This document shows, one piece after another, positions 3,463 to 20,417 of a stretch of DNA of 64,000 nt. The stretch is from Leisingera sp. ANG1. GTDB taxonomy: Bacteria; Pseudomonadota; Alphaproteobacteria; Rhodobacterales; Rhodobacteraceae. Where the stretch lies: contig NZ_AFCF02000016.1 in NCBI RefSeq assembly GCF_000203975.2, positions 62,001-126,000 of the forward strand, read 5' to 3'. The number at the start of each line of letters is the position of its first letter. Position 1 is the first letter of the stretch. Below the pieces are notes generated by a model. It saw only the letters and a list, made by a program, of their open reading frames with translations. It did not search any database and was not told the DNA's origin. The position numbers and the translations under genes were made by a program.

Positions 3463-4244
3463 TCGAAGTGACCCAAGGCACCTCGCCGCTGGTGCTGGGG
3501 CTGCCCCACACCGGCACCGATGTTCCGCCGGAAATCTGGGACAGCCTGAACGAGACCGGCCGGGCGCTGGCCGATACCGACTGGCACATTCACGACCTCT
3601 ACACGGGGCTGGTGGAGGACATCACGACCGTCCGCACGCCGATCCACCGCTATGTGATCGACGTGAACCGCGACCCCGCAGGTATCAGTCTCTATCCAGG
3701 GAAAAACACCACCACTCTGGTGCCGCTCACGGATTTCGACGGGCTGCCGATCTGGCAGGAGGGCAAGGAGCCGGACGAGGCGGAGATCACCCGCCGCCGC
3801 GACGCCTATCATGCGCCCTATCACGCGGCGCTGATGGCGGAGCTGGAGCGGGTGAAGGCGATTCACGGCTTTGCCATCCTCTACGACTGCCACTCGATCC
3901 GCGGCGACATTCCGTTCCTGTTCGAAGGCCGCCTGCCGGATTTCAACGTGGGCACCAACATGGGTGAAACCTGCGACGCGTCGATCGAGGCGCTGACTGT
4001 GGCCCATTGCGCGGCGGCGGAGGGTTATACCTCCACCCTCAACGGGCGCTTCAAGGGCGGCTGGACCACCCGTCACTACGGGCGGCCTGCGGATGGCTTG
4101 CACGCGATTCAGATGGAGCTGGCGCAGGCCACCTACTGCCAGGAAAGCCCGCCCTGGACCTATCTGCCGGAGCGCGCGGAAGAACTGCGCGCCCATCTCA
4201 CCAACATTCTGACTGATCTTAAAAACTGGAGGCCCTCGGCATGA
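3459..4244 (+). CDS. hutG: N-formylglutamate deformylase (HutG)
   Basis: Hydrolyses N-formyl-L-glutamate to glutamate and formate. The 261 residues match the N-formylglutamate amidohydrolase family rather than the arginase-like formimidoylglutamase. Seen are the N-terminal [17 protein letters not shown], the metal-binding YDCHSIRGD and the C-terminal [13 protein letters not shown]. Its presence implies the five-step route, which needs formimidoylglutamate deiminase (HutF). No hutF is visible here, so it should lie elsewhere, perhaps upstream. The gene overlaps both hutH and hutU by four bases (ATGA). Confidence 0.93.
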
Positions 4245-5923
4245 GCGATCCCCGCAAGAACACCCGCGACATCTTCCCGCCCACCGGCCCGGAAATCACC
4301 GCCAAGTCCTGGCTGACCGAGGCACCGATGCGGATGATGATGAACAACCTGCATCCCGACGTTGCCGAAAACCCGCATGAGCTGGTGGTCTACGGCGGCA
4401 TCGGCCGCGCGGCGCGCACCTGGAAGGATTTCGACCTGATCGTCGAGACCCTGAAGAACCTGGAAGAAGATCAGACCCTGATGGTGCAGTCCGGCAAGCC
4501 GGTCGGCGTGTTCCAGACCCACAAGGACGCGCCGCGGGTGCTGATCGCCAACTCCAACCTGGTGCCGCATTGGGCCAACTGGGACCACTTCAACGAGCTC
4601 GATAAGAAGGGCTTGATGATGTACGGCCAGATGACGGCCGGCTCCTGGATTTATATCGGCACGCAGGGCATCGTGCAGGGCACCTATGAGACCTTTGCCG
4701 AGGCGGGCCGCCAGCATTACGGCGGCGACCTCAAGGGCAAGTGGATCCTGACCGGCGGCCTGGGCGGCATGGGCGGCGCGCAGCCTTTGGCGGCTGTCTT
4801 TGCCGGTGCCTGCTGCCTGGCGGTGGAGTGCAACCCCGACAGCATCGACTTCCGCCTGCGTACAAAATACCTGGACGAGAAGGCCGAGACCCTCGACGAA
4901 GCGCTGGAGATGATCGAGCGCTGGACCGCCGCAGGCGAGGCGAAATCCGTGGGCCTCTTGGGCAACGCGGCAGAGATCTTCCCGGAGCTGGTGAAGCGCG
5001 CCGAAGCAGGCGGAATCCGCCCCGATATCGTGACCGACCAGACCTCCGCCCACGACCCGGTCAACGGCTACCTGCCGCTGGGCTGGACCATGGGCGAATG
5101 GAAAGAGCGCCGGGAAACGGACAAGAAAGCGGTGGAAAAGGCCGCCCGCGCCTCGATGAAGGTACAGGTCAAGGCGATGTGCGACTTCCACGCGATGGGC
5201 GTGCCCACGGTGGATTACGGCAACAACATCCGCCAGATGGCGCTGGAGGAAGGGCTGGAGAACGCCTTTGACTTCCCCGGCTTTGTGCCCGCCTATATCC
5301 GCCCGCTGTTCTGCAAGGGCATCGGCCCGTTCCGCTGGTGCGCGCTGTCGGGCGACCCGGAGGATATCCGCAAGACCGACGCCAAGATGAAGGAGCTGTT
5401 CCCGGAGAATGAAGGCCTGCACCGCTGGCTGGACATGGCGCAGGAACGCATCGCCTTCCAGGGCCTGCCCGCGCGGATCTGCTGGATCGGCCTGGGTGAC
5501 CGCCACAAGGCCGGCCTCGCCTTCAACGAGATGGTCCGAAACGGCGAGCTGTCGGCGCCGGTTGTGATTGGCCGCGACCATTTGGACTCGGGCTCTGTCG
5601 CGTCTCCGAACCGTGAGACCGAGGCGATGATGGACGGCTCTGACGCTGTCTCCGACTGGCCGCTGCTGAACGCGCTTCTGAACACCGCTTCCGGCGCCAC
5701 ATGGGTGTCGCTGCACCACGGCGGCGGCGTTGGCATGGGCTTCTCGCAGCATTCCGGCGTGGTGATTTGCTGCGACGGCACCGAGGACGCCGACCGCCGC
5801 ATCGGGCGGGTGCTGTGGAATGACCCGGCCACAGGCGTCATGCGCCATGCGGATGCGGGCTATGACATCGCCAAGGATTGCGCGCGCGAGCACGGGCTGA
5901 ACCTGCCCGGCATTCTGGGCTGA
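4241..5923 (+). CDS. hutU: urocanate hydratase (HutU)
   Basis: Converts urocanate to imidazolonepropionate using tightly bound NAD+ as an electrophile; cytoplasmic, second step of histidine degradation. At 560 residues it has the normal length. Recognisable segments are the N-terminal [11 protein letters not shown], the glycine-rich NAD-binding [13 protein letters not shown] near residues 175-187, [29 protein letters not shown], and the C-terminal [18 protein letters not shown] followed by [15 protein letters not shown]. It is the last hut gene. The order I-H-G-U with ATGA junctions indicates one transcript, ending at the hairpin block just downstream. Confidence 0.97.
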
Positions 5924-5940: not shown

Positions 5941-6020
5941 GGCAGAAATCCGGCGCGGATTTCTGCCATGAAAAATCGATTTTTCATGGCCGTTTCCCTC
6001 GCAGGGAAACGGCTATTTTT
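5941..6020. repeat. three tiled perfect hairpins between hutU and the gntR gene
   Basis: Three inverted repeats sit side by side. Stem 1: GGCAGAAATCC (5941-5951) with GGATTTCTGCC (5957-5967), 5-base loop. Stem 2: 5966-5977 (CCATGAAAAATC) with 5978-5989, a 24-base perfect palindrome. Stem 3: GCCGTTTCCC (5989-5998) with GGGAAACGGC (6004-6013), 5-base loop. Neighbouring stems share one or two bases, and the third reaches the stop codon of the convergent gntR gene. A TATTTTT run follows on the plus strand (6014-6020). It probably ends both transcripts; the tiled design also resembles a REP/BIME-type mosaic repeat. Confidence 0.75.
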
Positions 6021-6687
6021 CGTTCAGCAGCCGTTCGGCGGTGTTTTTGGCGTCGCTCAGGTGCCGTTCGATGGCGGCTTGCGCAGCCTTTGCATCCCCC
6101 GACACAATCGCCTCGCAAATGTCCTGCATATGGGCGGGGCCGGGTTTCTGGCGCTCCGCGGTCGACAGCGTCACCGCCCGCAGCCGGCTGATGCGGCCGT
6201 TCAGACGCTGGGCGATTTCCCAGGCGACGTTGTGGCCGGCGCCGTCAAAGATGATCCGGTAGAACTCTGTCGTGGCGCGCAGCATCGGGGTGGGCACGCC
6301 TGCGCCCACGGCCTCTTGCAGGCTCTGCAGTGCCGCCTTCAGCTGCTCTGCCAGCTGCGGTGTGATGTTGCGGGCGCATTCGGTGGCGGCGGCGGTCTCC
6401 AGCATCTGGCGGATGTCGTAGATCTGCCGCGCGTCGGCCCATGTGAGCTGCGCCACGATCGGGCCCTTGCCGGGCAGGATCTCCACCAGTCCCTCTGCCT
6501 CCAGATAGCGGATGGTTTCCCGCACCACGGTGCGGCTGACGCCAAGCTGGTCGCACAGGGGCCGCTCCACCAGCCGTTCGCCGGGGGTGAACTGGCCGGA
6601 GATGATCGCCTCGCGCATCCGCTCCTGCACGATGTCGCGCAGGGTCTGCGGCTGGTGGTCGATTTTGCTCATGATGGGGCTGGTCAT
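6013..6687 (-). CDS. GntR-family regulator with FCD ligand domain
   Basis: A 224-residue FadR-subfamily repressor. It has an N-terminal winged helix-turn-helix (TLRDIVQERMREAIISG, then LCDQLGVSRTVVRETIRYLEAEGLVEI), then an all-helical FCD domain with the usual metal-ligand pattern (for example DARQIYDIRQMLE, EFYRII, HMQDICEAIVSGD, AAIERHL). The start at 6687 (MTSPIMSK) is preferred to a further upstream ATG because GGAAGAA lies 3-9 bases before it. It is divergent from the monooxygenase operon beginning at 6795, and a perfect palindrome lies between them, so it most likely represses that operon until a carboxylate-like inducer binds. Not a HutC homologue: HutC carries a UTRA, not an FCD, domain. 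Confidence 0.9.
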   Translation of the reverse strand: MTSPIMSKIDHQPQTLRDIVQERMREAIISGQFTPGERLVERPLCDQLGVSRTVVRETIRYLEAEGLVEILPGKGPIVAQLTWADARQIYDIRQMLETAAATECARNITPQLAEQLKAALQSLQEAVGAGVPTPMLRATTEFYRIIFDGAGHNVAWEIAQRLNGRISRLRAVTLSTAERQKPGPAHMQDICEAIVSGDAKAAQAAIERHLSDAKNTAERLLNEK

Positions 6688-6730
6688 AGTTCTTCCGATA
6701 ACAACGAGGGCAGGGCGGAACAAGTCTGCA

Positions 6731-6760
6731 TTGACATACTGTATGATGGTATACCATATT
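6731..6760 (+). promoter_or_regulatory. promoter with GntR operator ATGGTATACCAT for the flavin monooxygenase operon
   Basis: A consensus TTGACA -35 box is at 6731-6736. With an 18-base spacer the -10 would be CATATT (6755-6760). A perfect 12-base palindrome ATGGTATACCAT (6746-6757) lies in the spacer and -10, the position expected for a repressor that blocks RNA polymerase. Many FCD-type GntR operators have a GTATAC-like core, so the adjacent regulator is the natural candidate. Confidence 0.65.
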
Positions 6761-6794
6761 ACGGCAACTGGAATCAGACAAGAAAGACCCGCCC

Positions 6795-7397
6795 ATGCCT
6801 GCCGAAATCCGCAAGACGCTGCTGCATGTCGAAGAAACCCTGATCGAGGGCGGCAAGGCAGCGGAAACCCCGCTCAAGATGATTGCCGCGGTGGCGGTGA
6901 TCAAAAACCCCTGGGCAGGGCAGGGATTTGTCGAGGACCTGCGCCCGGCGATCCATGACTGCGCGCCCGGTCTGGGCGAGAAGCTGACCGCGATGATCCT
7001 GGAAGCGGCCGGCGGCGGCGACAAGGTGGAGGGCTACGGCAAATCCGCCATCGTCGGTGTGAATGGCGAGGTCGAGCATGCCTCTGCCCTGATCCACACG
7101 CTGCGGTTCGGCAATCACTTCCGCGAGGCGGTGGGGGCGAAATCCTATCTGGCCTTCACCAACACCCGCGGGCCGGCCAATGCCTCGCTGCAGATCCCGC
7201 TGATGGACAAGAACGACGGCGGGCGCCGCAGCCATTACCTGACCATCCAGCTGTCGGTTGCCGATGCGCCCGGCCCGGATGAGATCGTGATCGCGCTGGG
7301 TGCTTCGATAGGCGGCCGTCCGCATCACCGCATCGGCGACCGCTATCAGGACCTGAAGGAACTGGGCCATGACGTCGACAATCCTGCCGCTGTCTGA
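6795..7397 (+). CDS. DUF1185 / AA_synth family protein
   Basis: This 200-residue protein resembles the 'amino acid synthesis' (AA_synth, formerly DUF1185) family, whose biochemical function is not established. Features are an N-terminal EIRKTLLHVEETLIEGGK, a central GxGGGDKVEGYGKSAIVG, GNHFREAVGAKSY, NTRGPANAS and a C-terminal GGRPHHRIGDRYQDL. Family structures are, as I recall, of the Bacillus chorismate-mutase-like fold also used by YjgF/RidA and cyanuric acid hydrolase-type proteins. It is the first gene of a five-gene operon behind the GntR operator and overlaps the next gene by 29 bases. In context it may act on a ring or enamine intermediate, but this is inference. Confidence 0.7.
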   Translation: MPAEIRKTLLHVEETLIEGGKAAETPLKMIAAVAVIKNPWAGQGFVEDLRPAIHDCAPGLGEKLTAMILEAAGGGDKVEGYGKSAIVGVNGEVEHASALIHTLRFGNHFREAVGAKSYLAFTNTRGPANASLQIPLMDKNDGGRRSHYLTIQLSVADAPGPDEIVIALGASIGGRPHHRIGDRYQDLKELGHDVDNPAAV

Positions 7398-8172
7398 GCC
7401 TTACGGGGCCGTCTCCTGCCATAGGGCAGGGGAGGGGTCTCCGCTGGTGCTGATCCACGGGGTCGGCATGCAATCGGCGGCCTGGGGGCCGCAGATTGAG
7501 GCTTTTGCGCAGACCCATGAGGTCATCGCGCTGGACATGCCCGGCCATGGCGGCAGCGCGCCGCTGCCGGAGGGCGCGGAACTGCCGGATTATGTGGCCT
7601 GGCTGCACGCGGTTTTGCAGGCGCTGGATCTGGGGCCGGTTTCCTTGGCTGGCCACTCCATGGGCGCGCTGATTGCCGGCGGCTATGCTGTCAGCCATCC
7701 GGAGAACGCGGCCCGCGTGGCGCTGCTGAACGGGGTGTTCCGCCGTTCCTCAGACGCACGGGCTGCGGTTGAGGCGCGCGCGGCTGAAATCCGCGCGGGC
7801 AGCTTTGATCTGGAGACACCGCTGGCGCGCTGGTTCGGGCAGAGTGAGACCGACCAGGCGGCACGGGCGCAGGTCGGGGAATGGCTGTCAGCTGTGAACC
7901 TGGCGGGCTACGCAGCCGCCTATACCGCCTTTGCCCGCGGTGACAGCACCTATGCGGACGGCTTTGCGGGCATCCCTTGCCCGCTGCTGGCGCTGACCGG
8001 CGATGGCGATCCGAACTCGACACCCGCGATGGCGCAAGCCATGGCGGATGCCGCGCCGCAGGGCAGGGCGGTTGTCATCGAAGGCCACCGGCATATGGTC
8101 AACTTGACTGCACCCGCAGCGGTCAATGCCGCCTTGCAGGGCTGGCTGGATACGGAAGGAGCAACGTCATGA
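7369..8172 (+). CDS. alpha/beta-fold hydrolase
   Basis: A 267-residue serine hydrolase of the alpha/beta fold. The oxyanion region is LIHGVGMQSAAWG, the nucleophile elbow is GHSMG with Ser at about 97, an acid is in TGDGDP (Asp about 212 or 214), and the catalytic His is in EGHRHMV (about 240-242). The start is inside the previous gene (29-base overlap), and the stop overlaps the next start (ATGA). Position in a monooxygenase operon suggests it hydrolyses an ester, lactone, carbamate or ring-cleavage product. It is reminiscent of RutD next to RutA and RutF in pyrimidine degradation, although the other Rut genes are missing. Confidence 0.85.
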   Translation: MTSTILPLSEPYGAVSCHRAGEGSPLVLIHGVGMQSAAWGPQIEAFAQTHEVIALDMPGHGGSAPLPEGAELPDYVAWLHAVLQALDLGPVSLAGHSMGALIAGGYAVSHPENAARVALLNGVFRRSSDARAAVEARAAEIRAGSFDLETPLARWFGQSETDQAARAQVGEWLSAVNLAGYAAAYTAFARGDSTYADGFAGIPCPLLALTGDGDPNSTPAMAQAMADAAPQGRAVVIEGHRHMVNLTAPAAVNAALQGWLDTEGATS

Positions 8173-9095
8173 GCGAGATCGACCCGCGCGCTCTGCGAAA
8201 CGCATTCGGGACCTTCATGACCGGCGTTACCGTGGTGACAACCCATGATGCGGACGGAAACCCCATCGGTTTTACCGCCAATTCCTTTACCTCGGTGTCG
8301 CTGGACCCGCCGCTGGTGCTGGTGTGCATCGCCAATTCCTCCAGCAACTACGCCGCGTTCGAGCAGGCGGGCGGGTTTGCCGTCAATGTGCTGGCGGAGG
8401 ACCAGAAGGACGTCTCGAACACCTTCGCACGGCCTGTCGAGGACCGTTTTGCCGCCGTCAGCTGGCAGAACGGGCCGCAGGGCAGCCCGGTGTTCGAGGG
8501 TGTCTCCGCCTGGTTCGACTGCACCATGCACAACCGGGTTGAGGCGGGCGACCACCTGATCCTGATCGGACGGGTGGAGGCGTTTGAAACCTCGCCCGCG
8601 CCGGGGCTGGGATACGCCCGCGGCGCCTATGTGACCGCGGCGGCGGAGGCCGAAGCCCTGACTCAAGGAGCCAAGCTGATCGTCTCGGCATTGATCGAGC
8701 ATGAGGGCAAAGTGCTGCTCATGGGCAACGATCAGGGCAAGCTGACGCTGCCGGAAATCCGGGTCGGCAAGGAGGGTGCCTCTGCCGCCCTGGCCAAGCT
8801 GATCGCGGACACCGGCGTCGAGGCGGAGCCGGGGTTCATCTATTCCGTTTACGAAGACAAAGCGCGCGAACATCAGCACATCTCGTTTCTGTGCCAATCG
8901 GCCGGCGGCACACCGGCCAAGGGGGTTTTCACACCGCTGACCCAATCCACGCTGATGGACATTGCCGACGCGGCGATGTGCACCATGCTGGAGCGGTTCG
9001 CGAGTGAATCCCGGATGGGCAATTTCGGGGTGTATTATGGCAATCAGACCACCGGGCAGGTCCGCCCCGTGGCGACAGGGAGCAAGGGCGCATGA
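8169..9095 (+). CDS. flavin reductase domain fused to Nudix-like C-terminal domain
   Basis: A 308-residue protein starting at 8169 (MSEIDPRALRNAFGTFMTG), coupled to the upstream stop by ATGA. Residues 1-165 are a flavin reductase-like FMN-binding domain (GVTVVTTHD, IGFTANSFTSVSLDPPLVL, FAVNVLAEDQ), the usual length of a stand-alone reductase. About 130 further residues begin with LIVSALIEHEGKVLLMGN and contain LPEIRVGKEGASAALAKL then IADTGVEAE. This resembles a Nudix fold whose catalytic box (GX5EX7REUXEEXGU) is degenerate. The reductase would supply FMNH2 or FADH2 to the next gene's monooxygenase. The extra domain may sense or bind a nucleotide or flavin, but that is inference. Confidence 0.85.
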   Translation: MSEIDPRALRNAFGTFMTGVTVVTTHDADGNPIGFTANSFTSVSLDPPLVLVCIANSSSNYAAFEQAGGFAVNVLAEDQKDVSNTFARPVEDRFAAVSWQNGPQGSPVFEGVSAWFDCTMHNRVEAGDHLILIGRVEAFETSPAPGLGYARGAYVTAAAEAEALTQGAKLIVSALIEHEGKVLLMGNDQGKLTLPEIRVGKEGASAALAKLIADTGVEAEPGFIYSVYEDKAREHQHISFLCQSAGGTPAKGVFTPLTQSTLMDIADAAMCTMLERFASESRMGNFGVYYGNQTTGQVRPVATGSKGA

Positions 9096-10129
9096 AATTT
9101 TCCCTCTTTGCGCATATGGAGCGGATTTCCGCGGCAGACGACCAGAAGAGGCTTTATGACGAGTTCATCCAGCTGTGCAAAATCGCCGATGACGGCGGTA
9201 TGCATGCGGTTTGGACCGGCGAGCATCACGGGATGAACTTCACCATCTCGCCGAACCCGTTTCTGAACCTCATCGACGTGGCGCGGCACACCAAGAACGT
9301 GCGGCTGGGCACCGGCACGGTGATTGCGCCGTTCTGGCATCCGATCCGGCTGGCGGGTGAGGCGGCGATGACCGACATCATCACCGAGGGCCGCCTGGAC
9401 CTGGGCATCGCCCGCGGGGCCTATTCGTTTGAATACGAACGCATGATGCCCGGCATGGACGCCTGGGAGGCGGGCCAGCGGATGCGGGAGCTGATCCCGG
9501 CAGTGCAGGGGTTGTGGCAGGGTGACTATGCGCAGGAGGGGGAGTTCCACTCCTTCCCGAAAACCACCTCCTCGCCCAAGCCGCTGCAGCAGGACGGGCC
9601 GCCGATCTGGGTCGCGGCGCGCGATCCCAACAGTCATGAATTCGCGGTGAAGAATGGTTGCAATGTGCAGGTGACGCCGCTGTGGAAGGGTGATGAGGAA
9701 ATCACCGACCTGATGGGCAAGTTCAACGATGCCTGTGCGAAACACAGCGACGTGCCGCGGCCCAAGATCATGCTGCTGCAGCACACCTATGTCGCGGACA
9801 GCGCCGAGGATGTGAAACGCGGGGCGGAGGAGCTGAACCGTTTCTACTGCTACTTCGGGGCCTGGTTCATGAACCAGCGGGACGTCAGCCAGGGCCTGAT
9901 TGATCCCCTGAGTGACGAGGAGATTGCCGCGCATCCCTTCTACAGCCCTGAAGCGATGGAGCGCGATCTGGTGATTGGCGAACCGGCGGCGGTGATCGAG
10001 CGGCTGAAAAAGTATGAGGCGCTGGGATATGATGAATACTCGTTCTGGATCGATAGCAGCATGAGTTTCGAGCGCAAGAAAGCCTCGCTTGAGCGGTTCA
10101 TCACCGAAGTCATGCCCGCGTTTCAGTAA
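9092..10129 (+). CDS. luciferase-like (LLM class) flavin-dependent monooxygenase
   Basis: A 345-residue bacterial-luciferase-like TIM barrel that uses reduced flavin and O2 to oxygenate an organic substrate. Landmarks are the N-terminal MKFSLFAHMERI, VWTGEHHGMNFTISPNPF, RLGTGTVIAPFWHPIRLAGEAAM, and the RGAYSFEYERM segment typical of the alkanal/limonene-type branch. It overlaps the flavin reductase by four bases (ATGA), the classical arrangement of a two-component system. The substrate is not deducible; a downstream aldehyde dehydrogenase suggests that oxygenation yields an aldehyde. Start chosen by the overlap and by the family N-terminus. Confidence 0.88.
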   Translation: MKFSLFAHMERISAADDQKRLYDEFIQLCKIADDGGMHAVWTGEHHGMNFTISPNPFLNLIDVARHTKNVRLGTGTVIAPFWHPIRLAGEAAMTDIITEGRLDLGIARGAYSFEYERMMPGMDAWEAGQRMRELIPAVQGLWQGDYAQEGEFHSFPKTTSSPKPLQQDGPPIWVAARDPNSHEFAVKNGCNVQVTPLWKGDEEITDLMGKFNDACAKHSDVPRPKIMLLQHTYVADSAEDVKRGAEELNRFYCYFGAWFMNQRDVSQGLIDPLSDEEIAAHPFYSPEAMERDLVIGEPAAVIERLKKYEALGYDEYSFWIDSSMSFERKKASLERFITEVMPAFQ

Positions 10130-10141
10130 GGGAACCTGAGA

Positions 10142-11605
10142 ATGCAGACATTCCAGCAGTATATCGGCGGTGCGTTCGAGGACGCGAGCGAGACCTTTGA
10201 CAGCCTCGATCCGGCCACCGGCAAACCCTGGGCACAGATGCCTGCCGCTTCGGCGGCGGATGTGGACCGGGCGGTCAAGGCTGCGGAGGCTGCGTTCTTC
10301 TCGCCTGAATGGTCTGGGATGACGGCCACCCAGCGCGGCAAGCTGCTGATGCGGCTGGCTGATCTGGTGGCGGAAAATGCGCCGCGACTGGCGGAGCTTG
10401 AAACCCGCGACACCGGCAAGATCATTCGCGAGACTTCGGCCCAGATTGCCTATGTGGCGGAATACTACCGCTACTATGCCGGCCTCGCCGACAAGATCGA
10501 AGGCGCGCATCTGCCGATTGATAAACCGGACATGGAGGTCTGGCTGCGGCGCGAGCCGGTGGGGGTGGTGGCGGCCATCGTGCCGTGGAATTCGCAGCTG
10601 TTCCTGTCTGCGGTCAAAATTGGCCCGGCGCTGGCGGCGGGCTGCACGGTTGTCTTGAAGGCGTCCGAGGAAGGCCCGGCGCCGATGCTGGAATTTGCCC
10701 GCATCTTTGATCAGGCGGGCTTTCCGCCCGGCGTGCTGAACGTGATCACCGGCGGGCCGGAGGCGGGTGCTGCGCTGACCAGCCACGCGTCGGTCGCCCA
10801 TGTGGCCTTCACCGGCGGGCCGGAGACCGCGCGCCATATCGTGCGCAACTCGGCAGAGAATCTTGCCTCCACCTCGCTGGAGCTGGGCGGCAAGTCGCCC
10901 TTTATCGTGTTCGACGATGCGGATCTGGAAAGCGCAGTGAATGCGCAGGTCTCTGGTATCTTCGCTGCCACCGGGCAAAGCTGCGTCGCGGGATCGCGGC
11001 TGGTGATCCAGAAGGGCATCAAGGATGCTTTCCTTGCGCGGCTGAAGGAGAAAGCCGAAGCGGTGGTGATCGGCGCGCCGGATGACATGGCAACCGAGGT
11101 CGGGCCGCTTTGCACCCTGAAACAGCGAGATCACGCACTGCGGCTGATCGGAGCCTCGGTTGACGCCGGGGCGAAACTGGTCACTGGCGGCGCAGCGCCG
11201 GAAGGGGAGGGGTTCTATTTTCCGCCCACGGTGCTGGATTGCTCCGGTGCACCGGAGGCACCCTGCCTGTCGACTGAATTCTTCGGCCCGGTGTTGTCGG
11301 TGGTGGAGTTTGAGACCGAGGCGGAGGCGATGGAAATCGCCAACAACACCGCATTTGGCCTGGCCTCGGGCGTGTTCACCCAAAACCTCACCCGCGCGCA
11401 CCGGATGATCCGGGGCATCCGGGCGGGCATCGTCTGGGTCAACACCTACCGCGCGGTGAGCCCGATTGCGCCCTTTGGGGGCCATGGGCTGTCGGGCCAC
11501 GGGCGCGAGGGCGGGCTGCAGGCGGCCTTGGATTACACCAAGGTGAAGGCCGTCTGGCTTCGCACCAGCGATGATCCAATCCCCGATCCCTTTGTGATGC
11601 GCTGA
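10142..11605 (+). CDS. NAD(P)+-dependent aldehyde dehydrogenase
   Basis: A 487-residue aldehyde dehydrogenase. It has the catalytic Cys at about 281 (TGQSCVAGSR), the general-base Glu at about 247 (LELGGKSPF), the cofactor-binding PWNSQLFLSAVKIGPAL segment and the Rossmann FTGGPETAR. The C-terminal SPIAPFGGHGLSGHGREGG is the usual subunit-contact strand. It is the last gene of the flavin monooxygenase operon, 12 bases after the LLM stop with a GGGAACC ribosome site. It presumably oxidises the aldehyde produced by the pathway to an acid. A hairpin follows at 11623. Confidence 0.93.
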   Translation: MQTFQQYIGGAFEDASETFDSLDPATGKPWAQMPAASAADVDRAVKAAEAAFFSPEWSGMTATQRGKLLMRLADLVAENAPRLAELETRDTGKIIRETSAQIAYVAEYYRYYAGLADKIEGAHLPIDKPDMEVWLRREPVGVVAAIVPWNSQLFLSAVKIGPALAAGCTVVLKASEEGPAPMLEFARIFDQAGFPPGVLNVITGGPEAGAALTSHASVAHVAFTGGPETARHIVRNSAENLASTSLELGGKSPFIVFDDADLESAVNAQVSGIFAATGQSCVAGSRLVIQKGIKDAFLARLKEKAEAVVIGAPDDMATEVGPLCTLKQRDHALRLIGASVDAGAKLVTGGAAPEGEGFYFPPTVLDCSGAPEAPCLSTEFFGPVLSVVEFETEAEAMEIANNTAFGLASGVFTQNLTRAHRMIRGIRAGIVWVNTYRAVSPIAPFGGHGLSGHGREGGLQAALDYTKVKAVWLRTSDDPIPDPFVMR

Positions 11606-11784: not shown

Positions 11785-11991
11785 ATGAGTGACGCAATTT
11801 ACAAGACGGTGGATGTGGTGGGCAGCTCGCAGTCCAGCATCGAGGACGCGATCAGCGGGGCGATTGCCCGCGCGTCCAAGACCATTGACCATATCAGCTG
11901 GTTCGAGGTCGGAGAGATCCGCGGCCATGTCGAGGACGGCAAGGTGGCCCATTACCAGGTGGGGCTGAAGATCGGCTTCCGGCTGGACTGA
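11785..11991 (+). CDS. dodecin family flavin-binding protein
   Basis: A 68-residue protein of the dodecin family, small dodecameric shells that store FMN/riboflavin or CoA. It matches the family from YKTVDVVGSSQSSIEDAI through ISWFEVGEIRGHVEDGK to HYQVGLKIGFRLD; the Trp of SWFEV is the flavin-stacking residue. The start at 11785 is used rather than the ATG 15 bases upstream because GAGGAGGTG (11772-11780) is correctly spaced for it. It is a separate unit, but lies next to a flavin-consuming operon, where flavin buffering could be useful (inference). Confidence 0.93.
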   Translation: MSDAIYKTVDVVGSSQSSIEDAISGAIARASKTIDHISWFEVGEIRGHVEDGKVAHYQVGLKIGFRLD

Positions 11992-12999: not shown

Positions 13000-13974
13000 T
13001 CAGCCGCTGGTGTTCCTGACCCAGGGCTTCTCCTGCACTCGTGCCTCGCGGATGGTCCGCCCGTAATGCCCGCTGAACGACCGCCCCAGCGAAGAGGCAG
13101 AGGAAAACCCGCAGCGCATCGCAATCTGCTCCAGGCTGAGATGGGTTTCCTCCGACAGGTAGCGGGCGTGCTGGAGCCGCAGCATCTTGTAGTATTTTCC
13201 CGGCGTCATGCCGAGTTCGCGCTGGAACGCCCGGGCCAGGGTGCGTTCGGACAGCGACACCCGCTTGGCCAGGGCCGCCGTGCTTAGCGGGGTTTCGATG
13301 GTCTCGGCCATCAGGTTCGCGGCCTTCAGGATCTTGGGCGAGCCGCGCTGCTCCAGCCTCGCGGCGCCGCGGTTCAGTTCCGACTGGCGCGACGGGTCAT
13401 AGACAAACATCGTTGAGGCACCGAAGGCGGCGGCGGAACCGTAAAGATCCTGAATGAGGCTCAGCATCATGTCGAGCGCGGTGCTGGCGCCGCCGCAGGT
13501 CAGGAAGGGGCCGGAGCGGACAAAGCGGGCTGTCGAAACCTCGGCATTCGGGAAGGCCTCGGCAAAGGCGTCCAGCTCCTGCCAGTGGATCGTCGCGCTG
13601 TGCCCGTCCAGCACCCCGGCCGCAGCCAGCAGCCAGGCGGCGGTATCGAGCGCCAGTACGAGCCGGGCAGCCCGCGTGGCTGCCCGGAGCTTGGCCAGCA
13701 GGGCAGGCGTCACCTGTTCGCGCACATGGTAGCCGGCAACCAGAACCAGGGTGCGGTTGCCCTGGCCTTCGTCAAAGGCACCGTCCGGTGTGATCTGCAG
13801 CCCGCTGGAACTGCGCACCGGCGCCCCGTTCAGCGTGGTGACACGCCATCCGGCAACATCCTGGCCCGCATTCATCCGCACATCGCGCAGCGGTTCCATG
13901 GCGCTGGCCAGCACCATGTTGGAAAACCCCTCGAACAGCAGGAATTCGAATATTGGCGGCGGATTTGTCTGCAT
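13000..13974 (-). CDS. GlxA-family (DJ-1/PfpI + AraC) transcriptional regulator, probable carnitine regulator
   Basis: A 324-residue regulator. Residues about 1-190 are a class I glutamine-amidotransferase-like sensor domain (FEFLLFEGFSNMVLASAMEPLR, LVLVAGYHV, DTAAWLLAAAGVLDG). A C-terminal AraC DNA-binding domain with two helix-turn-helix motifs follows (LSTAALAKRVSLSERTLARA; LSLEQIAMRCGFSSASSLGR). The ATG at 13974 (MQTNPPP) is chosen over one at 14070 because the domain begins directly after it. Carnitine and betaine regulators (CdhR, GbdR) belong to this family, and the gene is divergent from the carnitine operon, so it is probably its activator. It has no adjacent gene on its own strand. 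Confidence 0.9.
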   Translation of the reverse strand: MQTNPPPIFEFLLFEGFSNMVLASAMEPLRDVRMNAGQDVAGWRVTTLNGAPVRSSSGLQITPDGAFDEGQGNRTLVLVAGYHVREQVTPALLAKLRAATRAARLVLALDTAAWLLAAAGVLDGHSATIHWQELDAFAEAFPNAEVSTARFVRSGPFLTCGGASTALDMMLSLIQDLYGSAAAFGASTMFVYDPSRQSELNRGAARLEQRGSPKILKAANLMAETIETPLSTAALAKRVSLSERTLARAFQRELGMTPGKYYKMLRLQHARYLSEETHLSLEQIAMRCGFSSASSLGRSFSGHYGRTIREARVQEKPWVRNTSG

Positions 13975-14010
13975 CTGTATAGTAATTGACCGAAATTGTA
14001 TAAGCGCTGC

Positions 14011-14052
14011 GTCAACTCCTGCGCTAATCACGCAGGAAGTCAAGCATCTTGA
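14011..14052. promoter_or_regulatory. dyads in the regulator/carnitine operon divergent promoter
   Basis: TCCTGCG (14017-14023) and CGCAGGA (14031-14037) form a perfect dyad with a 7-base spacer. TCAAG-cat-CTTGA follows at 14040-14052, and the direct repeat GTCAA occurs at 14011-14015 and 14039-14043. They lie between the two divergent genes and are candidate sites for the GlxA/AraC-type regulator. No clear -35/-10 pair was assigned. Confidence 0.4.
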
Positions 14053-14102
14053 CGATCCGCCGAAGACCACCTGACGCCTGCTCTCTAACCGCTGATACCT
14101 TC

Positions 14103-16049
14103 ATGACTACCGCTCCTCTTCTCTGGCAGCCGGATCTTTCGGCGCGCCGCAAACCTTTGCTGTCCGGCTTCATGGCGCAGGCTTCTGCTGCCGCTGGTAC
14201 AGCTCTGGACAGCTTCGCCGCACTGCACGCCTGGTCGGTTGCGCAGCCGCAGGACTTCTGGCCGCTGGCCTGGGACTTTTGCGGGCTAGAGGGCGATCAG
14301 GGCACGGTTCCGTTGCTGGCCCATCAGGACCCGATGCAAGTCCGCTTCTTCCCCGAAGCGCGGCTGAACATCGTGGAGACATTCCTGAAGAACGCTGACG
14401 GGCGCGAGGCAATTGTGTTCATCGGTGAGGATGGCCGCCGCATGGCCTGGACCCGCGCAGAGCTGAAGCGCGAGGTTGAAATGCTCGCTGCCGCCCTGCG
14501 GGACGCCGGGATCGGCGCTGGCGACCACGTCGCGGGCTATGTGCCGAACATGCCGCAGACCGTGGCGGCGATGCTGGCCACGGCCTCTCTGGGGGCGGTC
14601 TGGTCCTCCTGCGCGCCGGAGAGCGGGCCGGATGTGGTGGTCGACCGGTTTGGCCAGATCGAGCCCAAGCTGATGTTTGCCGCAGATGGCTATTTCTACA
14701 ACGGCAAGGTGTTTGAGACCCGCGCCGCCATTGCCGAGGTCGCCGCCCGGGTGCCGTCGGTCCGGCAGATCGTGGTCTGGCCCTATGCCGGCGAGGCGCA
14801 GGACCTGCCGAAAGGCATGGCCGCCTATGAGGGTTTCAAGCAGGAAGATGCCCCGGCGCTGGACTGCCGTCCCATGGGCTTCCGCGATCCGCTCTATGTG
14901 ATGTTTTCCTCCGGCACCACCGGCAAGCCCAAGTGCATTGAGCATTCCGGCGGCGGCACCCTGCTGCGGATGCTGGTGGAGCAGCAGCTGCACTGCGACC
15001 TGCAACCGGGCGACCGGATGTTCTATTACACCACCTGCAACTGGATGATGTGGAACTGGCAGGTGGCGGCGCTGGCCTCCGAGGCCGTGATCGTGCTGTT
15101 TGACGGCAATCCGATGTATCCGGGCATGCGCCGCCTGTTCGACCTGGCTGAGGCGGAGAAGGTCACGCATTTCGGTATTTCCGCCAAATACATCGATGCC
15201 TCGCAAAAGCGCCGCAACCGGCCTGCGGACAGTCATGACCTGGCTGCGCTGCGGGTGGTTCTGTCCACCGGTTCGCCGCTGTCGCCCGAGGGCTTTGCCC
15301 ATGTCTATGCCGACTGGAAGGCGGATGTGCAGCTGGCCTCGATCTGCGGCGGCACCGATATTCTGGGCTGTTTCATCGGCGGCTGCCCGCTGCTGCCGGT
15401 GCATCAGGGCGAAATTCAGGCGCCGATGCTGGGGCTGGATGTGGCGACTCTGAACGATCAGGGCGAACCTGTTGAAGGTGTGGCGGGCGAGCTGGTCTGC
15501 CGCAATGCGCATCCGTCGATGCCGACGCGGTTCCTGAACGACCCCGGCAATGCCCGTTACCGCGCCAGCTATTTCGAAGCCTATCCCAATATCTGGCGGC
15601 AGGGCGATTTCACCATCCGCACGGAACATGGCGGCTATGTGGTGCTGGGCCGCTCGGACGCGACGCTGAACCCCGGCGGCGTGCGGATCGGCACGGCGGA
15701 AATCTACCGGCAGCTCGACAAGATAGACGAGGTCGCGGATGCGGTGGTGGTCGGCCAGAGCATCGATAACGACGTGCGGGTGGTGCTGTTTGTGGTTCCT
15801 GCCGAAAGTGCTGCGCTAGACGACGCGCTAACCGCCCGGATCAAAACGGAAATCCGCAGAAATGCCTCGCCACGCCACGTGCCCGCGAAAATCATCGCCG
15901 TCGCAGACATCCCGCGCACCAAGTCCGGCAAGACTGCCGAGCTGGCGGTGCGCGATGTGGTGAACAAACATCCCGTCCGCAACCTCTCCGGCCTCGCCAA
16001 TCCGCAGGTGCTGGAGCTGTTTGCGGATCACCCTGAATTGCAAGCTTAA
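14103..16049 (+). CDS. acetoacetate--CoA ligase
   Basis: Activates acetoacetate with ATP and CoA to acetoacetyl-CoA. The 648 residues have the length of the AACS family (about 650). The adenylation core is evident: SSGTTGKPK at about 269-277, YTTCNWMMWNWQ, GISAKYIDASQK, CGGTDILGCF, GDFTIRTEHGGYVVLGRSDATLNPGG and a C-terminal catalytic-Lys motif PRTKSGKTAE. The start at 14103 (MTTAPLLW) gives the family N-terminus; an in-frame ATG at 14049 lies in the regulatory region. In this cluster it recycles the acetoacetate released by the beta-keto acid cleavage enzyme during carnitine breakdown. Confidence 0.93.
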   Translation: MTTAPLLWQPDLSARRKPLLSGFMAQASAAAGTALDSFAALHAWSVAQPQDFWPLAWDFCGLEGDQGTVPLLAHQDPMQVRFFPEARLNIVETFLKNADGREAIVFIGEDGRRMAWTRAELKREVEMLAAALRDAGIGAGDHVAGYVPNMPQTVAAMLATASLGAVWSSCAPESGPDVVVDRFGQIEPKLMFAADGYFYNGKVFETRAAIAEVAARVPSVRQIVVWPYAGEAQDLPKGMAAYEGFKQEDAPALDCRPMGFRDPLYVMFSSGTTGKPKCIEHSGGGTLLRMLVEQQLHCDLQPGDRMFYYTTCNWMMWNWQVAALASEAVIVLFDGNPMYPGMRRLFDLAEAEKVTHFGISAKYIDASQKRRNRPADSHDLAALRVVLSTGSPLSPEGFAHVYADWKADVQLASICGGTDILGCFIGGCPLLPVHQGEIQAPMLGLDVATLNDQGEPVEGVAGELVCRNAHPSMPTRFLNDPGNARYRASYFEAYPNIWRQGDFTIRTEHGGYVVLGRSDATLNPGGVRIGTAEIYRQLDKIDEVADAVVVGQSIDNDVRVVLFVVPAESAALDDALTARIKTEIRRNASPRHVPAKIIAVADIPRTKSGKTAELAVRDVVNKHPVRNLSGLANPQVLELFADHPELQA

Positions 16050-16067
16050 CCCCAAAGGAGCGAGACC

Positions 16068-16985
16068 ATGCCCCTGACCATGAACCGAGACGTCTTCATC
16101 ACTGCCGCCGTGACCGGCTCTGGCGGCACCCAGGACAAATCCCCCCATGTGCCGCGCTCGCCCAAGCAGATCGCGGAGTCCGCGATCGCGGCGGCCAAGG
16201 CTGGTGCGGCGGTGGTGCATTGCCATGTGCGCGACCCCGAAACCGGTGCACCGTCCCGGAAACTTGAGTATTACCGGGAGCTTACTGACCGCATCCGCGA
16301 TTCCGAAGTTGACGTGGTGCTGAACCTGACCGCAGGCATGGGCGGCGACATCGTGTTCGGCTCGACTGAAGCGCCGCTGCCGGTCAACGAGGCGGCAACC
16401 GACATGATCGGCGCCACCGAGCGGATGGCCCATATCGCCGAATGCCTGCCGGAAATCTGCACGCTCGACTGCGGCACCATGAACTTTGCCGAGGCCGATT
16501 ACGTCATGACCAACACACCGGGCATGCTGCGGGCGATGGGTCAGATGATGACCGATCTGGGCGTGAAGCCGGAGATCGAGGCGTTTGATACCGGCCACCT
16601 GTGGTTTGCCAAGCAATTGGTAAAAGAAGGAATTCTGGAGCCGAACGCGCTGGTGCAGCTGTGCATGGGTGTTCCGTGGGGCGCGCCGAACGACCTCAAC
16701 ACCTTCATGGCGATGGTCAACAATGTGCCGTCCGACTGGACCTGGTCGGCGTTCTCCCTTGGCCGGGACCAGATGCCCTATGCGGCGCAGTCGGTGCTGG
16801 CGGGCGGCAACGTGCGGGTGGGCCTTGAGGACAACCTGTTCCTGGACAAGGGCGTGCTGGCCACCAACGCACAGCTTGTGGAGCGCGCGGTCGGCGTGAT
16901 CGAGGGCATGGGCGCCCGGATCATCGGCCCGGAGGCGGTCCGCGAGAAGCTGGGCCTGACCAAGCGCGCGCCGGTGGCGAAATAA
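16068..16985 (+). CDS. beta-keto acid cleavage enzyme (BKACE), probable 3-dehydrocarnitine:acetyl-CoA cleavage
   Basis: A 305-residue TIM-barrel protein of the BKACE family, which condenses a beta-keto acid with acetyl-CoA to give acetoacetate and a new acyl-CoA. The zinc ligands sit in VVHCHVRDP (His 51 and 53), and the family pattern continues with LNLTAGMGGD, LDCGTMNF, EAFDTGHLWFAKQL, MGVPWGAPN and GLEDNLFLDKGVLATN. Between an acetoacetate ligase and a carnitine dehydrogenase, the substrate is almost certainly 3-dehydrocarnitine, giving betainyl-CoA and acetoacetate (the CdhC role in pseudomonads). A good GGAG ribosome site precedes the ATG. Confidence 0.92.
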   Translation: MPLTMNRDVFITAAVTGSGGTQDKSPHVPRSPKQIAESAIAAAKAGAAVVHCHVRDPETGAPSRKLEYYRELTDRIRDSEVDVVLNLTAGMGGDIVFGSTEAPLPVNEAATDMIGATERMAHIAECLPEICTLDCGTMNFAEADYVMTNTPGMLRAMGQMMTDLGVKPEIEAFDTGHLWFAKQLVKEGILEPNALVQLCMGVPWGAPNDLNTFMAMVNNVPSDWTWSAFSLGRDQMPYAAQSVLAGGNVRVGLEDNLFLDKGVLATNAQLVERAVGVIEGMGARIIGPEAVREKLGLTKRAPVAK

Positions 16986-16995
16986 GCCGAAATGC

Positions 16996-17037
16996 GGGGG
17001 TGCCACGCGTGCACCCCCTGTACACCCCCTGTGCACC
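16996..17037 (+). repeat. intercistronic hairpin with 11-base tandem repeats
   Basis: GGGGGTGC (16996-17003) pairs with GCACCCCC (17011-17018) across a 7-base loop. The right arm is the first of two copies of an 11-base unit (GCACCCCCTGT at 17011-17021, ACACCCCCTGT at 17022-17032), followed by GCACC. The left arm can therefore alternatively pair with either unit. It lies between the BKACE gene and the carnitine dehydrogenase gene, with no T-run, so it is more likely an mRNA processing or stability element than a terminator. Confidence 0.6.
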
Positions 17038-17073
17038 GGCGGGCGCACAGGGAAGGCGATCAGAGGATAGATC

Positions 17074-18495: not shown

Positions 18496-18500
18496 CTTGG

Positions 18501-18536
18501 AAACCCGGCGGCTCGCGCGCTGCCGGGTTTCTTTTT
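18501..18536 (+). terminator. Rho-independent terminator after the carnitine catabolic genes
   Basis: AAACCCGGC (18501-18509) pairs with GCCGGGTTT (18522-18530) and is followed at once by CTTTTT (18531-18536). It begins 6 bases after the dehydrogenase stop codon. It separates the catabolic genes from the BCCT gene; 18537-18714 holds no gene I can support and should contain the promoter of the transporter gene. Confidence 0.9.
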
Positions 18537-18725
18537 GCGGGCCGGGTCTCCTCCCCGATCCGGCCCGTTTTTTATTGATTGGCGGTCTGCTGCGGATGCG
18601 GCGGCCGGGGGAGGATCAAGCCGGAGCGCGGCGGGGAAAGCTTCATCCCGTCAGGGCGTTCTGATCAGCCCGCCGGGCAAGGAGGGTCCCGGCGCTGAGA
18701 CACCTGAAATCTACGGGAGGACCAA

Positions 18726-20417
18726 ATGTCTGAAGAAAACTCCAACAGCCACCTGGTGGCAAAATCCGGTTTCTTTACCGGCCTGCATCCGGGGATGAGC
18801 ATTGCAGCCAAGGGCATGATTGCCGCCTTTGTGATCTTTACGGTCATGAACGTCGAGTTCGCCGGAGGCCTTTACAAGTCGATCCGCAGCTGGATCGAAA
18901 ACGGGCTCAGCTTCTATTACATCACCCTGTTTTCCATCGGGCTTTTTGTCTGCTTCTGGCTGATGTTCTCGCGTTTCGGAAAGATCCGCCTGGGCGATGA
19001 CGACTCGCGTCCCGAATTCAGCAACTTCAGCTGGTTCTCGATGCTGTTCTCCGCAGGCATCGGCATCGGCATCCTGTTCTTTGGTGTTGCCGAGCCGATC
19101 TTCTACTTCGACACCTCTGCAGTCTGGGGCTATCCCAACAACCCGCATGCGGACCTTGCGGGCCATACGGAAATGGACATGCAGCGCGCGGTGGACGCGA
19201 TGCGCGTGACCTTCTTCCACTGGGGCTTCCACGGCTGGGCGTTTTACGTACTGGTTGGTCTGAGCCTGGCGTATTTCGGGTTCCGCAAGAAGCTGCCGCT
19301 GACCCTGCGGTCGGCGCTCTATCCGCTGATCGGCGAGCGCATTTACGGCCCCTGGGGGCACGCAGTGGACCTTCTGGCGGTGTTCGGCACGGTGTTTGGC
19401 GTCGCGACCTCGCTCGGTCTGGGCGTCAGCCAGATGGCGGCGGGTCTGAACCATCTGTTCGGTGTTGATCCCGGCACCGGCACCAAGCTGGTTCTGATCG
19501 CGGTTGTGTCGGTCATCGCAACTATTTCCGCGGTGTCCGGCGTTGGCAAGGGCATCCGCATCCTGTCGGAATGGAACATCTGGCTGTCGATCGTGCTGCT
19601 GGCAGCCTTTGTGATCTTTGGGCCGTTCCAGTGGCTGATGGGCCTGTTTGTGACCACTCTTGGTGACTATGTTGCAAGCTTCGTTCCGATGGGGTTCTGG
19701 ACGGCAACCGAAGGCCCGGATGTGGCCTGGCAGGGTGGCTGGACGATCTTTTACTGGGGCTGGTGGATTTCCTGGTCGCCGTTTGTCGGCGTGTTCATTG
19801 CCCGCATTTCGCGCGGCCGGACGATCCGCGAATTCATGGTCGGGGTGATGTTTGTTCCCACCACCATCGCGTTCTTCTGGCTGTGCATGTTCGGCGGCAA
19901 TGCGATCTGGCAGGAAATGCACATGGGCTCCGGCATTGCTTCGGCTGACGGGGCGGGCATCATCCAGACCGTGCGTGACTGGAACCTGCCGAGCGCGCTG
20001 TTCGGGACCATCGACAACATCGGCGCCACCAGCTGGATGGGCGACATGAGCTGGGTCAGCTGGCCGATGTCGCTGCTGGCGACGTTCCTGTTGTTCTCGT
20101 GGTTCATCACCTCGTCGGACTCCGGCACGCTGGTGATCACCACCATGCTTTCGATGGGGGACGACAACCCGCCGAAGAAGTTCCGCATCATCTGGGGCCT
20201 GGGCGAAGGCGTGGTTGCGGCGGCGCTGCTGCTGGCCGGGGGGCTTGGCGCGCTTCAGACCGCGTCGATTGCGGCGGCCTTCCCGATTTCCTTTGTGCTG
20301 ATCGCAATGATCTGGGGTTTGCTTAAGTCGCTGCACGACGATCCTTCGGCGTCGCCGATCTCGGTTGAGACGGTGGCAGCGGACGGAACCCGTATGAAGC
20401 AGGACCTGCACGCCTGA
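18726..20417 (+). CDS. BCCT-family betaine/carnitine transporter
   Basis: A 563-residue, 12-helix inner-membrane transporter of the betaine/carnitine/choline family. Family marks are WFSMLFSAGIGIGILFFGVAEP, HWGFHGWAFYVLVGLSLAYF, the Trp-rich WTIFYWGWWISWSPFVG with IARISRGRTIREF, FWLCMFGGNA and a C-terminal FLLFSWFITSSDSGTLVITT. A GGGAGG ribosome site precedes the ATG. Location directly behind carnitine catabolic genes suggests uptake of L-carnitine, or possibly gamma-butyrobetaine or betaine, coupled to ion or exchange. Sequence alone does not separate these. It has its own terminator, so it is probably a separate transcript. Confidence 0.92.
   Translation: MSEENSNSHLVAKSGFFTGLHPGMSIAAKGMIAAFVIFTVMNVEFAGGLYKSIRSWIENGLSFYYITLFSIGLFVCFWLMFSRFGKIRLGDDDSRPEFSNFSWFSMLFSAGIGIGILFFGVAEPIFYFDTSAVWGYPNNPHADLAGHTEMDMQRAVDAMRVTFFHWGFHGWAFYVLVGLSLAYFGFRKKLPLTLRSALYPLIGERIYGPWGHAVDLLAVFGTVFGVATSLGLGVSQMAAGLNHLFGVDPGTGTKLVLIAVVSVIATISAVSGVGKGIRILSEWNIWLSIVLLAAFVIFGPFQWLMGLFVTTLGDYVASFVPMGFWTATEGPDVAWQGGWTIFYWGWWISWSPFVGVFIARISRGRTIREFMVGVMFVPTTIAFFWLCMFGGNAIWQEMHMGSGIASADGAGIIQTVRDWNLPSALFGTIDNIGATSWMGDMSWVSWPMSLLATFLLFSWFITSSDSGTLVITTMLSMGDDNPPKKFRIIWGLGEGVVAAALLLAGGLGALQTASIAAAFPISFVLIAMIWGLLKSLHDDPSASPISVETVAADGTRMKQDLHA

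What the first reader, a model, noticed from the sequence alone, without database searches (positions are those of the whole stretch)
6687..11605. GntR-controlled five-gene flavin monooxygenase operon of unknown substrate
Genes encode a DUF1185/AA_synth protein, alpha/beta hydrolase, flavin reductase, luciferase-like oxygenase and aldehyde dehydrogenase, joined by overlaps (29, 4, 4 bases) and one 12-base gap. This is a complete oxygenate-then-hydrolyse-then-oxidise set with its own regulator and operator. It recalls Rut pyrimidine degradation (RutA/RutF/RutD types) but lacks RutB, RutC and RutG and adds an aldehyde dehydrogenase, so it is not Rut. No known pathway I can name has these five genes.
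Basis: partly seen in the sequence, partly recalled or inferred. Interest (0 to 1): 0.72.

Follow-up and report, generated by a model that had tools for sequence, protein, structure and literature searches.

The report
Trigonelline-degradation (tgn) operon in Leisingera
The five-gene operon is real, but it is the marine-bacterial version of an already described gene set that breaks open and consumes trigonelline, a plant and algal alkaloid, so it is ordinary rather than a new pathway.

Summary
The reading "no known pathway" is wrong. An Acinetobacter plasmid carries the same six genes in the same order, the last three annotated tgnA, tgnB, tgnC for trigonelline breakdown; window proteins are 47-74% identical to them. 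A paper read in passages says that the DUF1185 protein TgnF stimulates TgnE-dependent succinate-semialdehyde oxidation. Sinorhizobium pSymA, needed for growth on trigonelline, carries the same operon. 77 of 80 relatives hold all six genes; the exact operator core occurs once in the genome. So: tgnR and tgnF-D-A-B-C, turning trigonelline into succinate semialdehyde, methylamine and formate (products recalled). Against: the genome taken for R. pomeroyi DSS-3, reported to grow on trigonelline, has no close TgnB. Open: what TgnF does, and the role of a Nudix-fold tail on the reductase. Known kind, low interest.

The parts
6013..6687 (-). tgnR: GntR/FCD-family regulator (open frame runs to 6723; likely ATG at 6687)
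   Evidence: Pfam GntR 2.7e-18, FCD 4.8e-24; 47% identical to the GntR beside the PK01 tgn genes; divergent in 76 of 77 complete loci
6731..6760 (+). promoter-like TTGACA-18-CATATT with the operator ATGGTATACCAT (6746-6757) lying over the second hexamer
   Evidence: core at one place in the genome; core in 74 of 84 relatives' promoters
6795..7397 (+). tgnF: DUF1185/AA_synth protein (PF06684)
   Evidence: Pfam 2.3e-70; 70% identical to PK01 orthologue; TgnF described as a DUF1185 homologue (PMC7913881, passage)
7369..8172 (+). tgnD (name inferred): alpha/beta hydrolase, S97-D214-H242 conserved in at least 98% of 74 rows
   Evidence: 58% identical to PK01 hydrolase; conserved columns; PDB relatives include 3kxp, E 2.2e-11
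8169..9095 (+). tgnA: flavin reductase component; residues about 168-288 (8670-9032) form a Nudix-fold tail without the Nudix box
9092..10129 (+). tgnB: luciferase-like trigonelline monooxygenase, oxygenase component
   Evidence: 73.8% identical to annotated tgnB
10142..11605 (+). tgnC: aldehyde-dehydrogenase-family MFMB dehydrogenase; C281 and E247 conserved in at least 98% of 82 rows
   Evidence: 70% identical to annotated tgnC; conserved columns
18726..20417 (+). BCCT transporter: only a candidate for trigonelline uptake; equally a carnitine carrier
   Evidence: 65% identical to the BCCT next to the tgn operon of L018, own genome's next best 39-42%; but follows carnitine genes

Best explanation
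This is an orthologous trigonelline (N-methylnicotinate) catabolic operon: tgnR divergent from tgnF-tgnD-tgnA-tgnB-tgnC. The GntR/FCD regulator binds a palindrome over the -10 box and, by inference, is a repressor released by trigonelline or an intermediate. TgnA makes reduced flavin; TgnB uses it with O2 to cleave the C5-C6 bond of the pyridinium ring, giving a hydroxybutyrolactone (MFMB); TgnC oxidises this to (E)-2-((N-methylformamido)methylene)succinate (MFMS); TgnD hydrolyses MFMS to formate, methylamine, CO2 and succinate semialdehyde; an SSA dehydrogenase (TgnE, elsewhere in this genome), helped by TgnF, feeds succinate to the TCA cycle, and methylamine supplies nitrogen. Shown here: gene content, order, homology, operator. 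From literature seen here: ring opening by TgnAB (section read), the TgnF effect (passage read). Recalled from the abstract of Perchat et al. 2018, which I could not open: bond cleaved, MFMS, products. Inferred: repressor role, inducer, uptake, which SSADH, and that the hydrolase is TgnD.
For: Same six genes in the same order in Acinetobacter sp. PK01 with tgnA/tgnB/tgnC annotated; identities GntR 47, DUF1185 70, hydrolase 58, reductase 51, LLM 74, ALDH 70%. DUF1185 = TgnF family (PMC7913881, passages). TgnA/TgnB open the trigonelline ring (PMC8269262, section 8 read). S. meliloti 1021 pSymA has the same operon plus an SSADH, and a strain without pSymA does not grow on trigonelline (PMC4207669, one passage; title of Goldmann 1991 in a reference list). 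Order conserved in 77 of 80 loci; exact operator core in 74 of 84 promoters, PK01 included. The genome has an SSADH 56% identical to that of PK01 and a TIGR03105 protein over cut-off (its link to methylamine use is recalled).
Against: No assay in Leisingera. No tgnE and no transporter in the operon. The hydrolase is not named tgnD in the PK01 record. GntR (47%) and reductase (51%) are only moderately alike. The S. meliloti promoter lacks the operator core. The genome that I take for R. pomeroyi DSS-3 (SPO0826 stretch 100%) has no TgnB above 40%, although DSS-3 is reported to grow better on trigonelline than on homarine; so another route or a diverged set exists. pSymA is 1.35 Mb, so the S. meliloti trait links to a replicon, not to this operon. 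The source paper could not be read.
Confidence: 0.92

Rival explanations
1. The operon's main substrate is another N-methylpyridinium betaine, above all homarine (N-methylpicolinate), a far more abundant marine isomer; the enzymes are TgnAB relatives with shifted specificity.
For: Homarine reached 0.6-67 nM in marine particles against 1-300 pM for trigonelline (PMC8269262, section 8; a later correction, seen only in a search listing, says the homarine values were overstated). Diverged sets with the same gene families exist in A. fabrum and G416, so the kit can diversify.
Against: The LLM is 74% identical to annotated TgnB and groups with it apart from the diverged LLMs. PMC8269262 argues that TgnAB is sterically unlikely to act on homarine. 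A homarine pathway paper exists in which Mgd takes part (cited in PMC13390433, passage), but it is not held and could not be compared.
Confidence: 0.05
2. An uncharacterised pathway for another heterocycle or amide, as the first reader proposed (Rut-like but not Rut).
For: LLM + RutF-type reductase + RutD-type hydrolase resemble Rut at family level; no NCBIfam equivalog model reached its cut-off for any of the six proteins among the matches shown.
Against: All six genes have orthologues in the same order in a locus annotated for trigonelline, and the replicon that carries the same operon in S. meliloti is required for growth on trigonelline.
Confidence: 0.03

Closest known systems
tgn trigonelline-degradation gene set of Acinetobacter (A. 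baylyi ADP1, Perchat et al. 2018, not readable here; compared through Acinetobacter sp. PK01 NZ_CP094644.1)
   Same: GntR, DUF1185, hydrolase, tgnA, tgnB, tgnC in the same order; 47-74% identity; same operator core
   Different: No SSA dehydrogenase, CMD, DUF1330 or permease gene beside the operon here, as PK01 has
Same operon on S. meliloti 1021 pSymA
   Same: All five operon genes in order, 52-76% identity; GntR 43%
   Different: GntR lies on the same strand; SSADH 4.4 kb downstream; operator core absent
Rut pyrimidine degradation
   Same: Works alike: LLM ring opening with reduced flavin from a separate reductase, and an alpha/beta hydrolase (general knowledge)
   Different: Not a member: RutF and RutD models far under cut-off, no RutA match; DUF1185 and ALDH genes instead of RutB, RutC, RutG in the operon
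Diverged sets of the same gene families: A. fabrum pAt (L098) and the G416 genome (L109)
   Same: LLM, flavin reductase, ALDH, alpha/beta hydrolase and DUF1185 genes together
   Different: LLM only 43% and 40% identical; other gene order and extra genes (glyoxylate/hydroxypyruvate reductase, CoA-transferase III, enoyl-CoA hydratase, L-PSP); substrates unknown

Membership tests
tgn (trigonelline catabolic operon) | Two-component flavin oxygenase TgnA + TgnB | tested here: met
   51% and 74% identity to annotated tgnA and tgnB over nearly full length; LLM groups with PK01 TgnB
tgn (trigonelline catabolic operon) | MFMB dehydrogenase TgnC (ALDH family) | tested here: met
   70% identity to annotated tgnC; C281 and E247 conserved
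tgn (trigonelline catabolic operon) | MFMS hydrolase TgnD | tested here: inconclusive
   Orthologous hydrolase in the same place (58%) with S97, D214, H242 conserved, but the PK01 record calls it only 'alpha/beta hydrolase'; the name TgnD is recalled
tgn (trigonelline catabolic operon) | DUF1185 protein TgnF | tested here: met
   70% identity to PK01 DUF1185; TgnF is a DUF1185 homologue (PMC7913881 passage)
tgn (trigonelline catabolic operon) | SSA dehydrogenase TgnE | tested here: inconclusive
   Not in the operon; best of 23 genome matches is 56% identical, on contig C17; a like gene lies beside the operon in 20 of 86 loci scanned
tgn (trigonelline catabolic operon) | GntR regulator with shared operator | tested here: met
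   47% identity; TGGTATACCA in both promoters
tgn (trigonelline catabolic operon) | Consumes trigonelline | not testable with these tools
   Needs growth or enzyme assay
Rut pyrimidine degradation | RutF and RutD equivalog scores | tested here: not met
   102.6 of 254.75 and 60.5 of 238.5 bits
Rut pyrimidine degradation | RutA oxygenase | tested here: not met
   No RutA model among the 24 NCBIfam matches of the LLM at E<=0.001
RidA/RutC-type enamine hydrolases (for TgnF) | Shared fold with RidA/RutC beyond the general chorismate-mutase-like arrangement | tested here: inconclusive
Homarine (hom) pathway | Homology to the published hom genes | not tested
   Paper not held

The most novel reading that the evidence does not exclude
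TgnF is not a mere stimulator of TgnE but the pathway's missing enzyme: it hydrolyses the N-methyl enamine/imine left after TgnD has removed the formyl group and CO2 has been lost, releasing succinate semialdehyde and methylamine, and so does the job that RutC does in the Rut pathway. Alongside, the degenerate Nudix-fold tail of TgnA would be a substrate sensor that lets the reductase make reduced flavin only when trigonelline is present.
Probability: 0.2. Interest if true: 0.45.

Novelty: already known. Interest (0 to 1): 0.15.

Why it matters
It removes a false lead and names the likely substrate: trigonelline, a methylated pyridine found in plants and in marine particles. TgnB is present in 21 of 21 genomes of the window's genus and in 64 of 394 family genomes from 393 genera, so it is a usable marker for likely trigonelline use. 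[quoted passage not shown]

Tried and rejected
Rut membership: rejected on model scores. Homarine as main substrate: set aside on orthology and on the argument in PMC8269262 (rival 1); the homarine pathway paper cited in PMC13390433 is not held, so its genes could not be compared. I first expected the 40%-identical set of G416 (L109) to be a homarine cluster; it also holds CoA-transferase III, enoyl-CoA hydratase, 3-hydroxyacyl-CoA dehydrogenase and L-PSP (RidA-family) genes, so I leave its substrate open. That RidA-family gene in the same cluster as a DUF1185 gene argues against TgnF simply replacing RutC.

Literature: searches gave nothing that I used beyond what other calls gave; search 5 led to PMC13390433; 106 led to passages without new facts. 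Reads that gave background or nothing used. Searches were passages whose content I used only as background (UniProt Q6F9F6 is TgnB in a figure legend). I did not read any paper whole. The Correction PMC10134881 was seen only in the listing.

Rows dropped: three reductase rows and two DUF1185 rows were left out of the alignments used for structure prediction (against 52, 53). The conservation counts used 74, 82 and 86 rows (hydrolase, ALDH, LLM) after start-codon and length filters. In the operator count 84 of 86 loci were used; the two left out (L050, L080) have no AA_synth hit. In one search, 17 of 87 loci (the window's own copies L001 and L082 among them) did not give all six ORFs under that script's start and length rules; the tblastn count is the one that I use. 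The tree used 25 rows chosen by hand, 19 of the 80 loci among them.
Full report
OBSERVATION. Pfam supports every family call. The window lies in contig C8 of a 4.59-Mb, 20-contig genome. The seven closest relatives of the LLM in genome contigs (92-98% identity, of 80 loci returned) are all Leisingera, so the host is most likely Leisingera.

REGULATION. The 107 bases between the likely gntR ATG (6687) and the DUF1185 ATG (6795) hold a TTGACA-18-CATATT pair at 6731-6760 (4 promoter-like sites in the scanned region against 0.9 expected) and, overlapping its second hexamer, the perfect palindrome ATGGTATACCAT at 6746-6757. Its core TGGTATACCA occurs at one place in the genome; the pattern read backwards, the tool's control, occurs three times. 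Of 84 promoters examined (78 of the 80 loci plus six plasmid loci), 74 have the exact core, starting 37-71 bases ahead of the DUF1185 start. Of the ten misses five hold a near form and five none of the cores looked for (L037, L041, L060, L062 and S. meliloti L097). Of 15,600 mononucleotide shuffles of the upstream regions 1 has the core. This fits a GntR/FCD repressor that blocks RNA polymerase; that it represses, and what releases it, is inference.

IDENTITY. A tblastn search of plasmid records with the LLM found 1,075 records. One, Acinetobacter sp. PK01 NZ_CP094644.1, annotates its 73.8%-identical protein as tgnB, flavin-dependent trigonelline monooxygenase oxygenase component. Its neighbourhood reads DUF1330, GntR, 'amino acid synthesis family protein' (DUF1185), alpha/beta hydrolase, tgnA, tgnB, tgnC, cytosine permease, a hypothetical protein, NAD-dependent succinate-semialdehyde dehydrogenase and a CMD-family protein. 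Window against PK01: GntR 47%, DUF1185 70%, hydrolase 58%, reductase 51%, LLM 74%, ALDH 70%. [quoted passage not shown] baylyi ADP1; its authors could not see such an effect with HcdD. PMC8269262 (section 8 read) says that bacterial trigonelline degradation begins with ring opening by TgnA/TgnB. Perchat et al. 2018, the source, is not held; the bond cleaved, MFMS and the end products are recalled from its abstract, and the tgnC product name in PK01, a (Z)-2-((N-methylformamido)methylene)-5-hydroxybutyrolactone dehydrogenase, agrees with them.

GENETIC SUPPORT. S. meliloti 1021 pSymA carries the same operon: DUF1185 75.5%, hydrolase 53%, reductase 52%, LLM 71%, ALDH 74%, GntR 43% identical to the window, and 4.4 kb after the ALDH an SSADH 56.5% identical to that of PK01. 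A strain without pSymA does not grow on 10 mM trigonelline as sole carbon source whereas the wild type does (PMC4207669, one passage); the title of Goldmann et al. 1991 places genes essential for trigonelline catabolism on pSym (seen in the reference list of PMC12489286). pSymA is 1.35 Mb, so this links replicon and trait, not operon and trait.

CONSERVATION. Of 80 loci 77 hold all six genes; in those 77 the five operon genes keep order and strand within 6 kb, and GntR is divergent in 76. Of the other three, L050 and L080 are cut by contig ends and L048 has no reductase match. The DUF1185-hydrolase overlap is exactly 29 bases in 77 of the 83 loci where both could be placed, one of the window's own copies among them. 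In the window's genus 21 of 21 genomes have the LLM (E<=1e-100); of 394 family genomes (393 genera) 64 have it at E<=1e-150. In a 25-row tree the window LLM, PK01 TgnB and the rhizobial, Xanthomonas and Lampropedia proteins fall on one side of a branch (100/99) with the A. fabrum and G416 LLMs on the other; the latter are long rows and the root is only a midpoint. Further genes recur beside the operon: SSADH in 20, CMD in 29 and DUF1330 in 29 of 86 loci scanned (ORFs under 100 aa not seen), and a BCCT transporter in an 11-locus cluster, all downstream.

HOW IT WORKS. TgnA reduces flavin; TgnB opens the ring; TgnC oxidises the hydroxybutyrolactone to MFMS; TgnD splits MFMS; TgnE, helped by TgnF, oxidises succinate semialdehyde. 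The hydrolase's PDB relatives include 3kxp, alpha-(N-acetylaminomethylene)succinic acid hydrolase (E 2.2e-11), whose substrate by name is an acetyl analogue of MFMS; but it is one of 273 hits and not the best. The genome also holds an SSADH 56% identical to that of PK01 (its neighbourhood was not examined) and a TIGR03105 protein at 649 bits (cut-off 469.6; over cut-off in 1 of 14 control genomes), which I take, from memory, as an entry to methylamine use by the N-methylglutamate route.

AGAINST. The genome that I take for R. pomeroyi DSS-3 (two contigs, 4.6 Mb, SPO0826 stretch 100%) has no LLM above 40% identity to the window's, yet DSS-3 was reported to grow better on trigonelline than on homarine. 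Either its diverged set does the job or another route exists. This weakens growth on trigonelline as a sign of this operon, not the identity of the window operon.

VERDICT. An ordinary orthologue of a described operon. Interest is low; what is left of interest lies in TgnF and in the reductase tail.

Noticed in passing
window 11785-11991 (+): A 68-aa open frame after the operon reads like dodecin, a small flavin-binding protein (recognised by eye, not by a search).
   Followed up: no
window 13000-20417: Carnitine-catabolism cluster downstream: GbdR/GlxA-type AraC regulator (below its equivalog cut-off), acetoacetate-CoA ligase, beta-keto acid cleavage enzyme, carnitine 3-dehydrogenase with thioesterase domain, BCCT transporter. 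With hutU upstream (4241-5923; 95% identical to annotated hutU of L. methylohalidivorans) the region gathers catabolic genes for nitrogen-rich small molecules.
   Followed up: partly
window 6735-6745: A second, odd-length palindrome CATACTGTATG lies directly before the main operator, possibly a second half-operator (seen; conservation not tested).
   Followed up: no
L098 1796-8586 (A. fabrum pAt, NZ_CP067029.1): A diverged set of the same families (reductase 41%, ALDH 43%, LLM 43%, hydrolase 31%, DUF1185 55%) with CMD and NIPSNAP genes beside a ProXVW-type betaine transporter: an uncharacterised relative of tgn, perhaps for another betaine.
   Followed up: partly
L109 (G416:C1:2851000-2870900): Another diverged set (LLM 40%, ALDH 56%, DUF1185 62%, reductase 38%, hydrolase 31%) with CoA-transferase III, enoyl-CoA hydratase and RidA-family genes in the genome that I take for R. 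pomeroyi DSS-3; the CoA-transferase and the reductase read as one 703-aa open frame.
   Followed up: partly
L099 6420-7585 and L100 6968-11978: DUF1185 genes elsewhere: two in tandem after 6-hydroxynicotinate reductase and UPF0280 genes in Sulfitobacter, one beside hydrolase, hydroxylase, NIPSNAP and SSADH genes in Burkholderia pyrrocinia. Suggests a DUF1185 role shared by several ring-opening pathways.
   Followed up: no
L048: A locus with the operon but no flavin reductase match between hydrolase and LLM.
   Followed up: no
loci L009-L081, minus strand beside gntR: DUF1330 and CMD-family genes recur next to the regulator (29 of 86 loci each, ORFs under 100 aa not seen); their part in the pathway is unknown, and no hit was listed in the Leisingera loci L002-L008.
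   Followed up: partly
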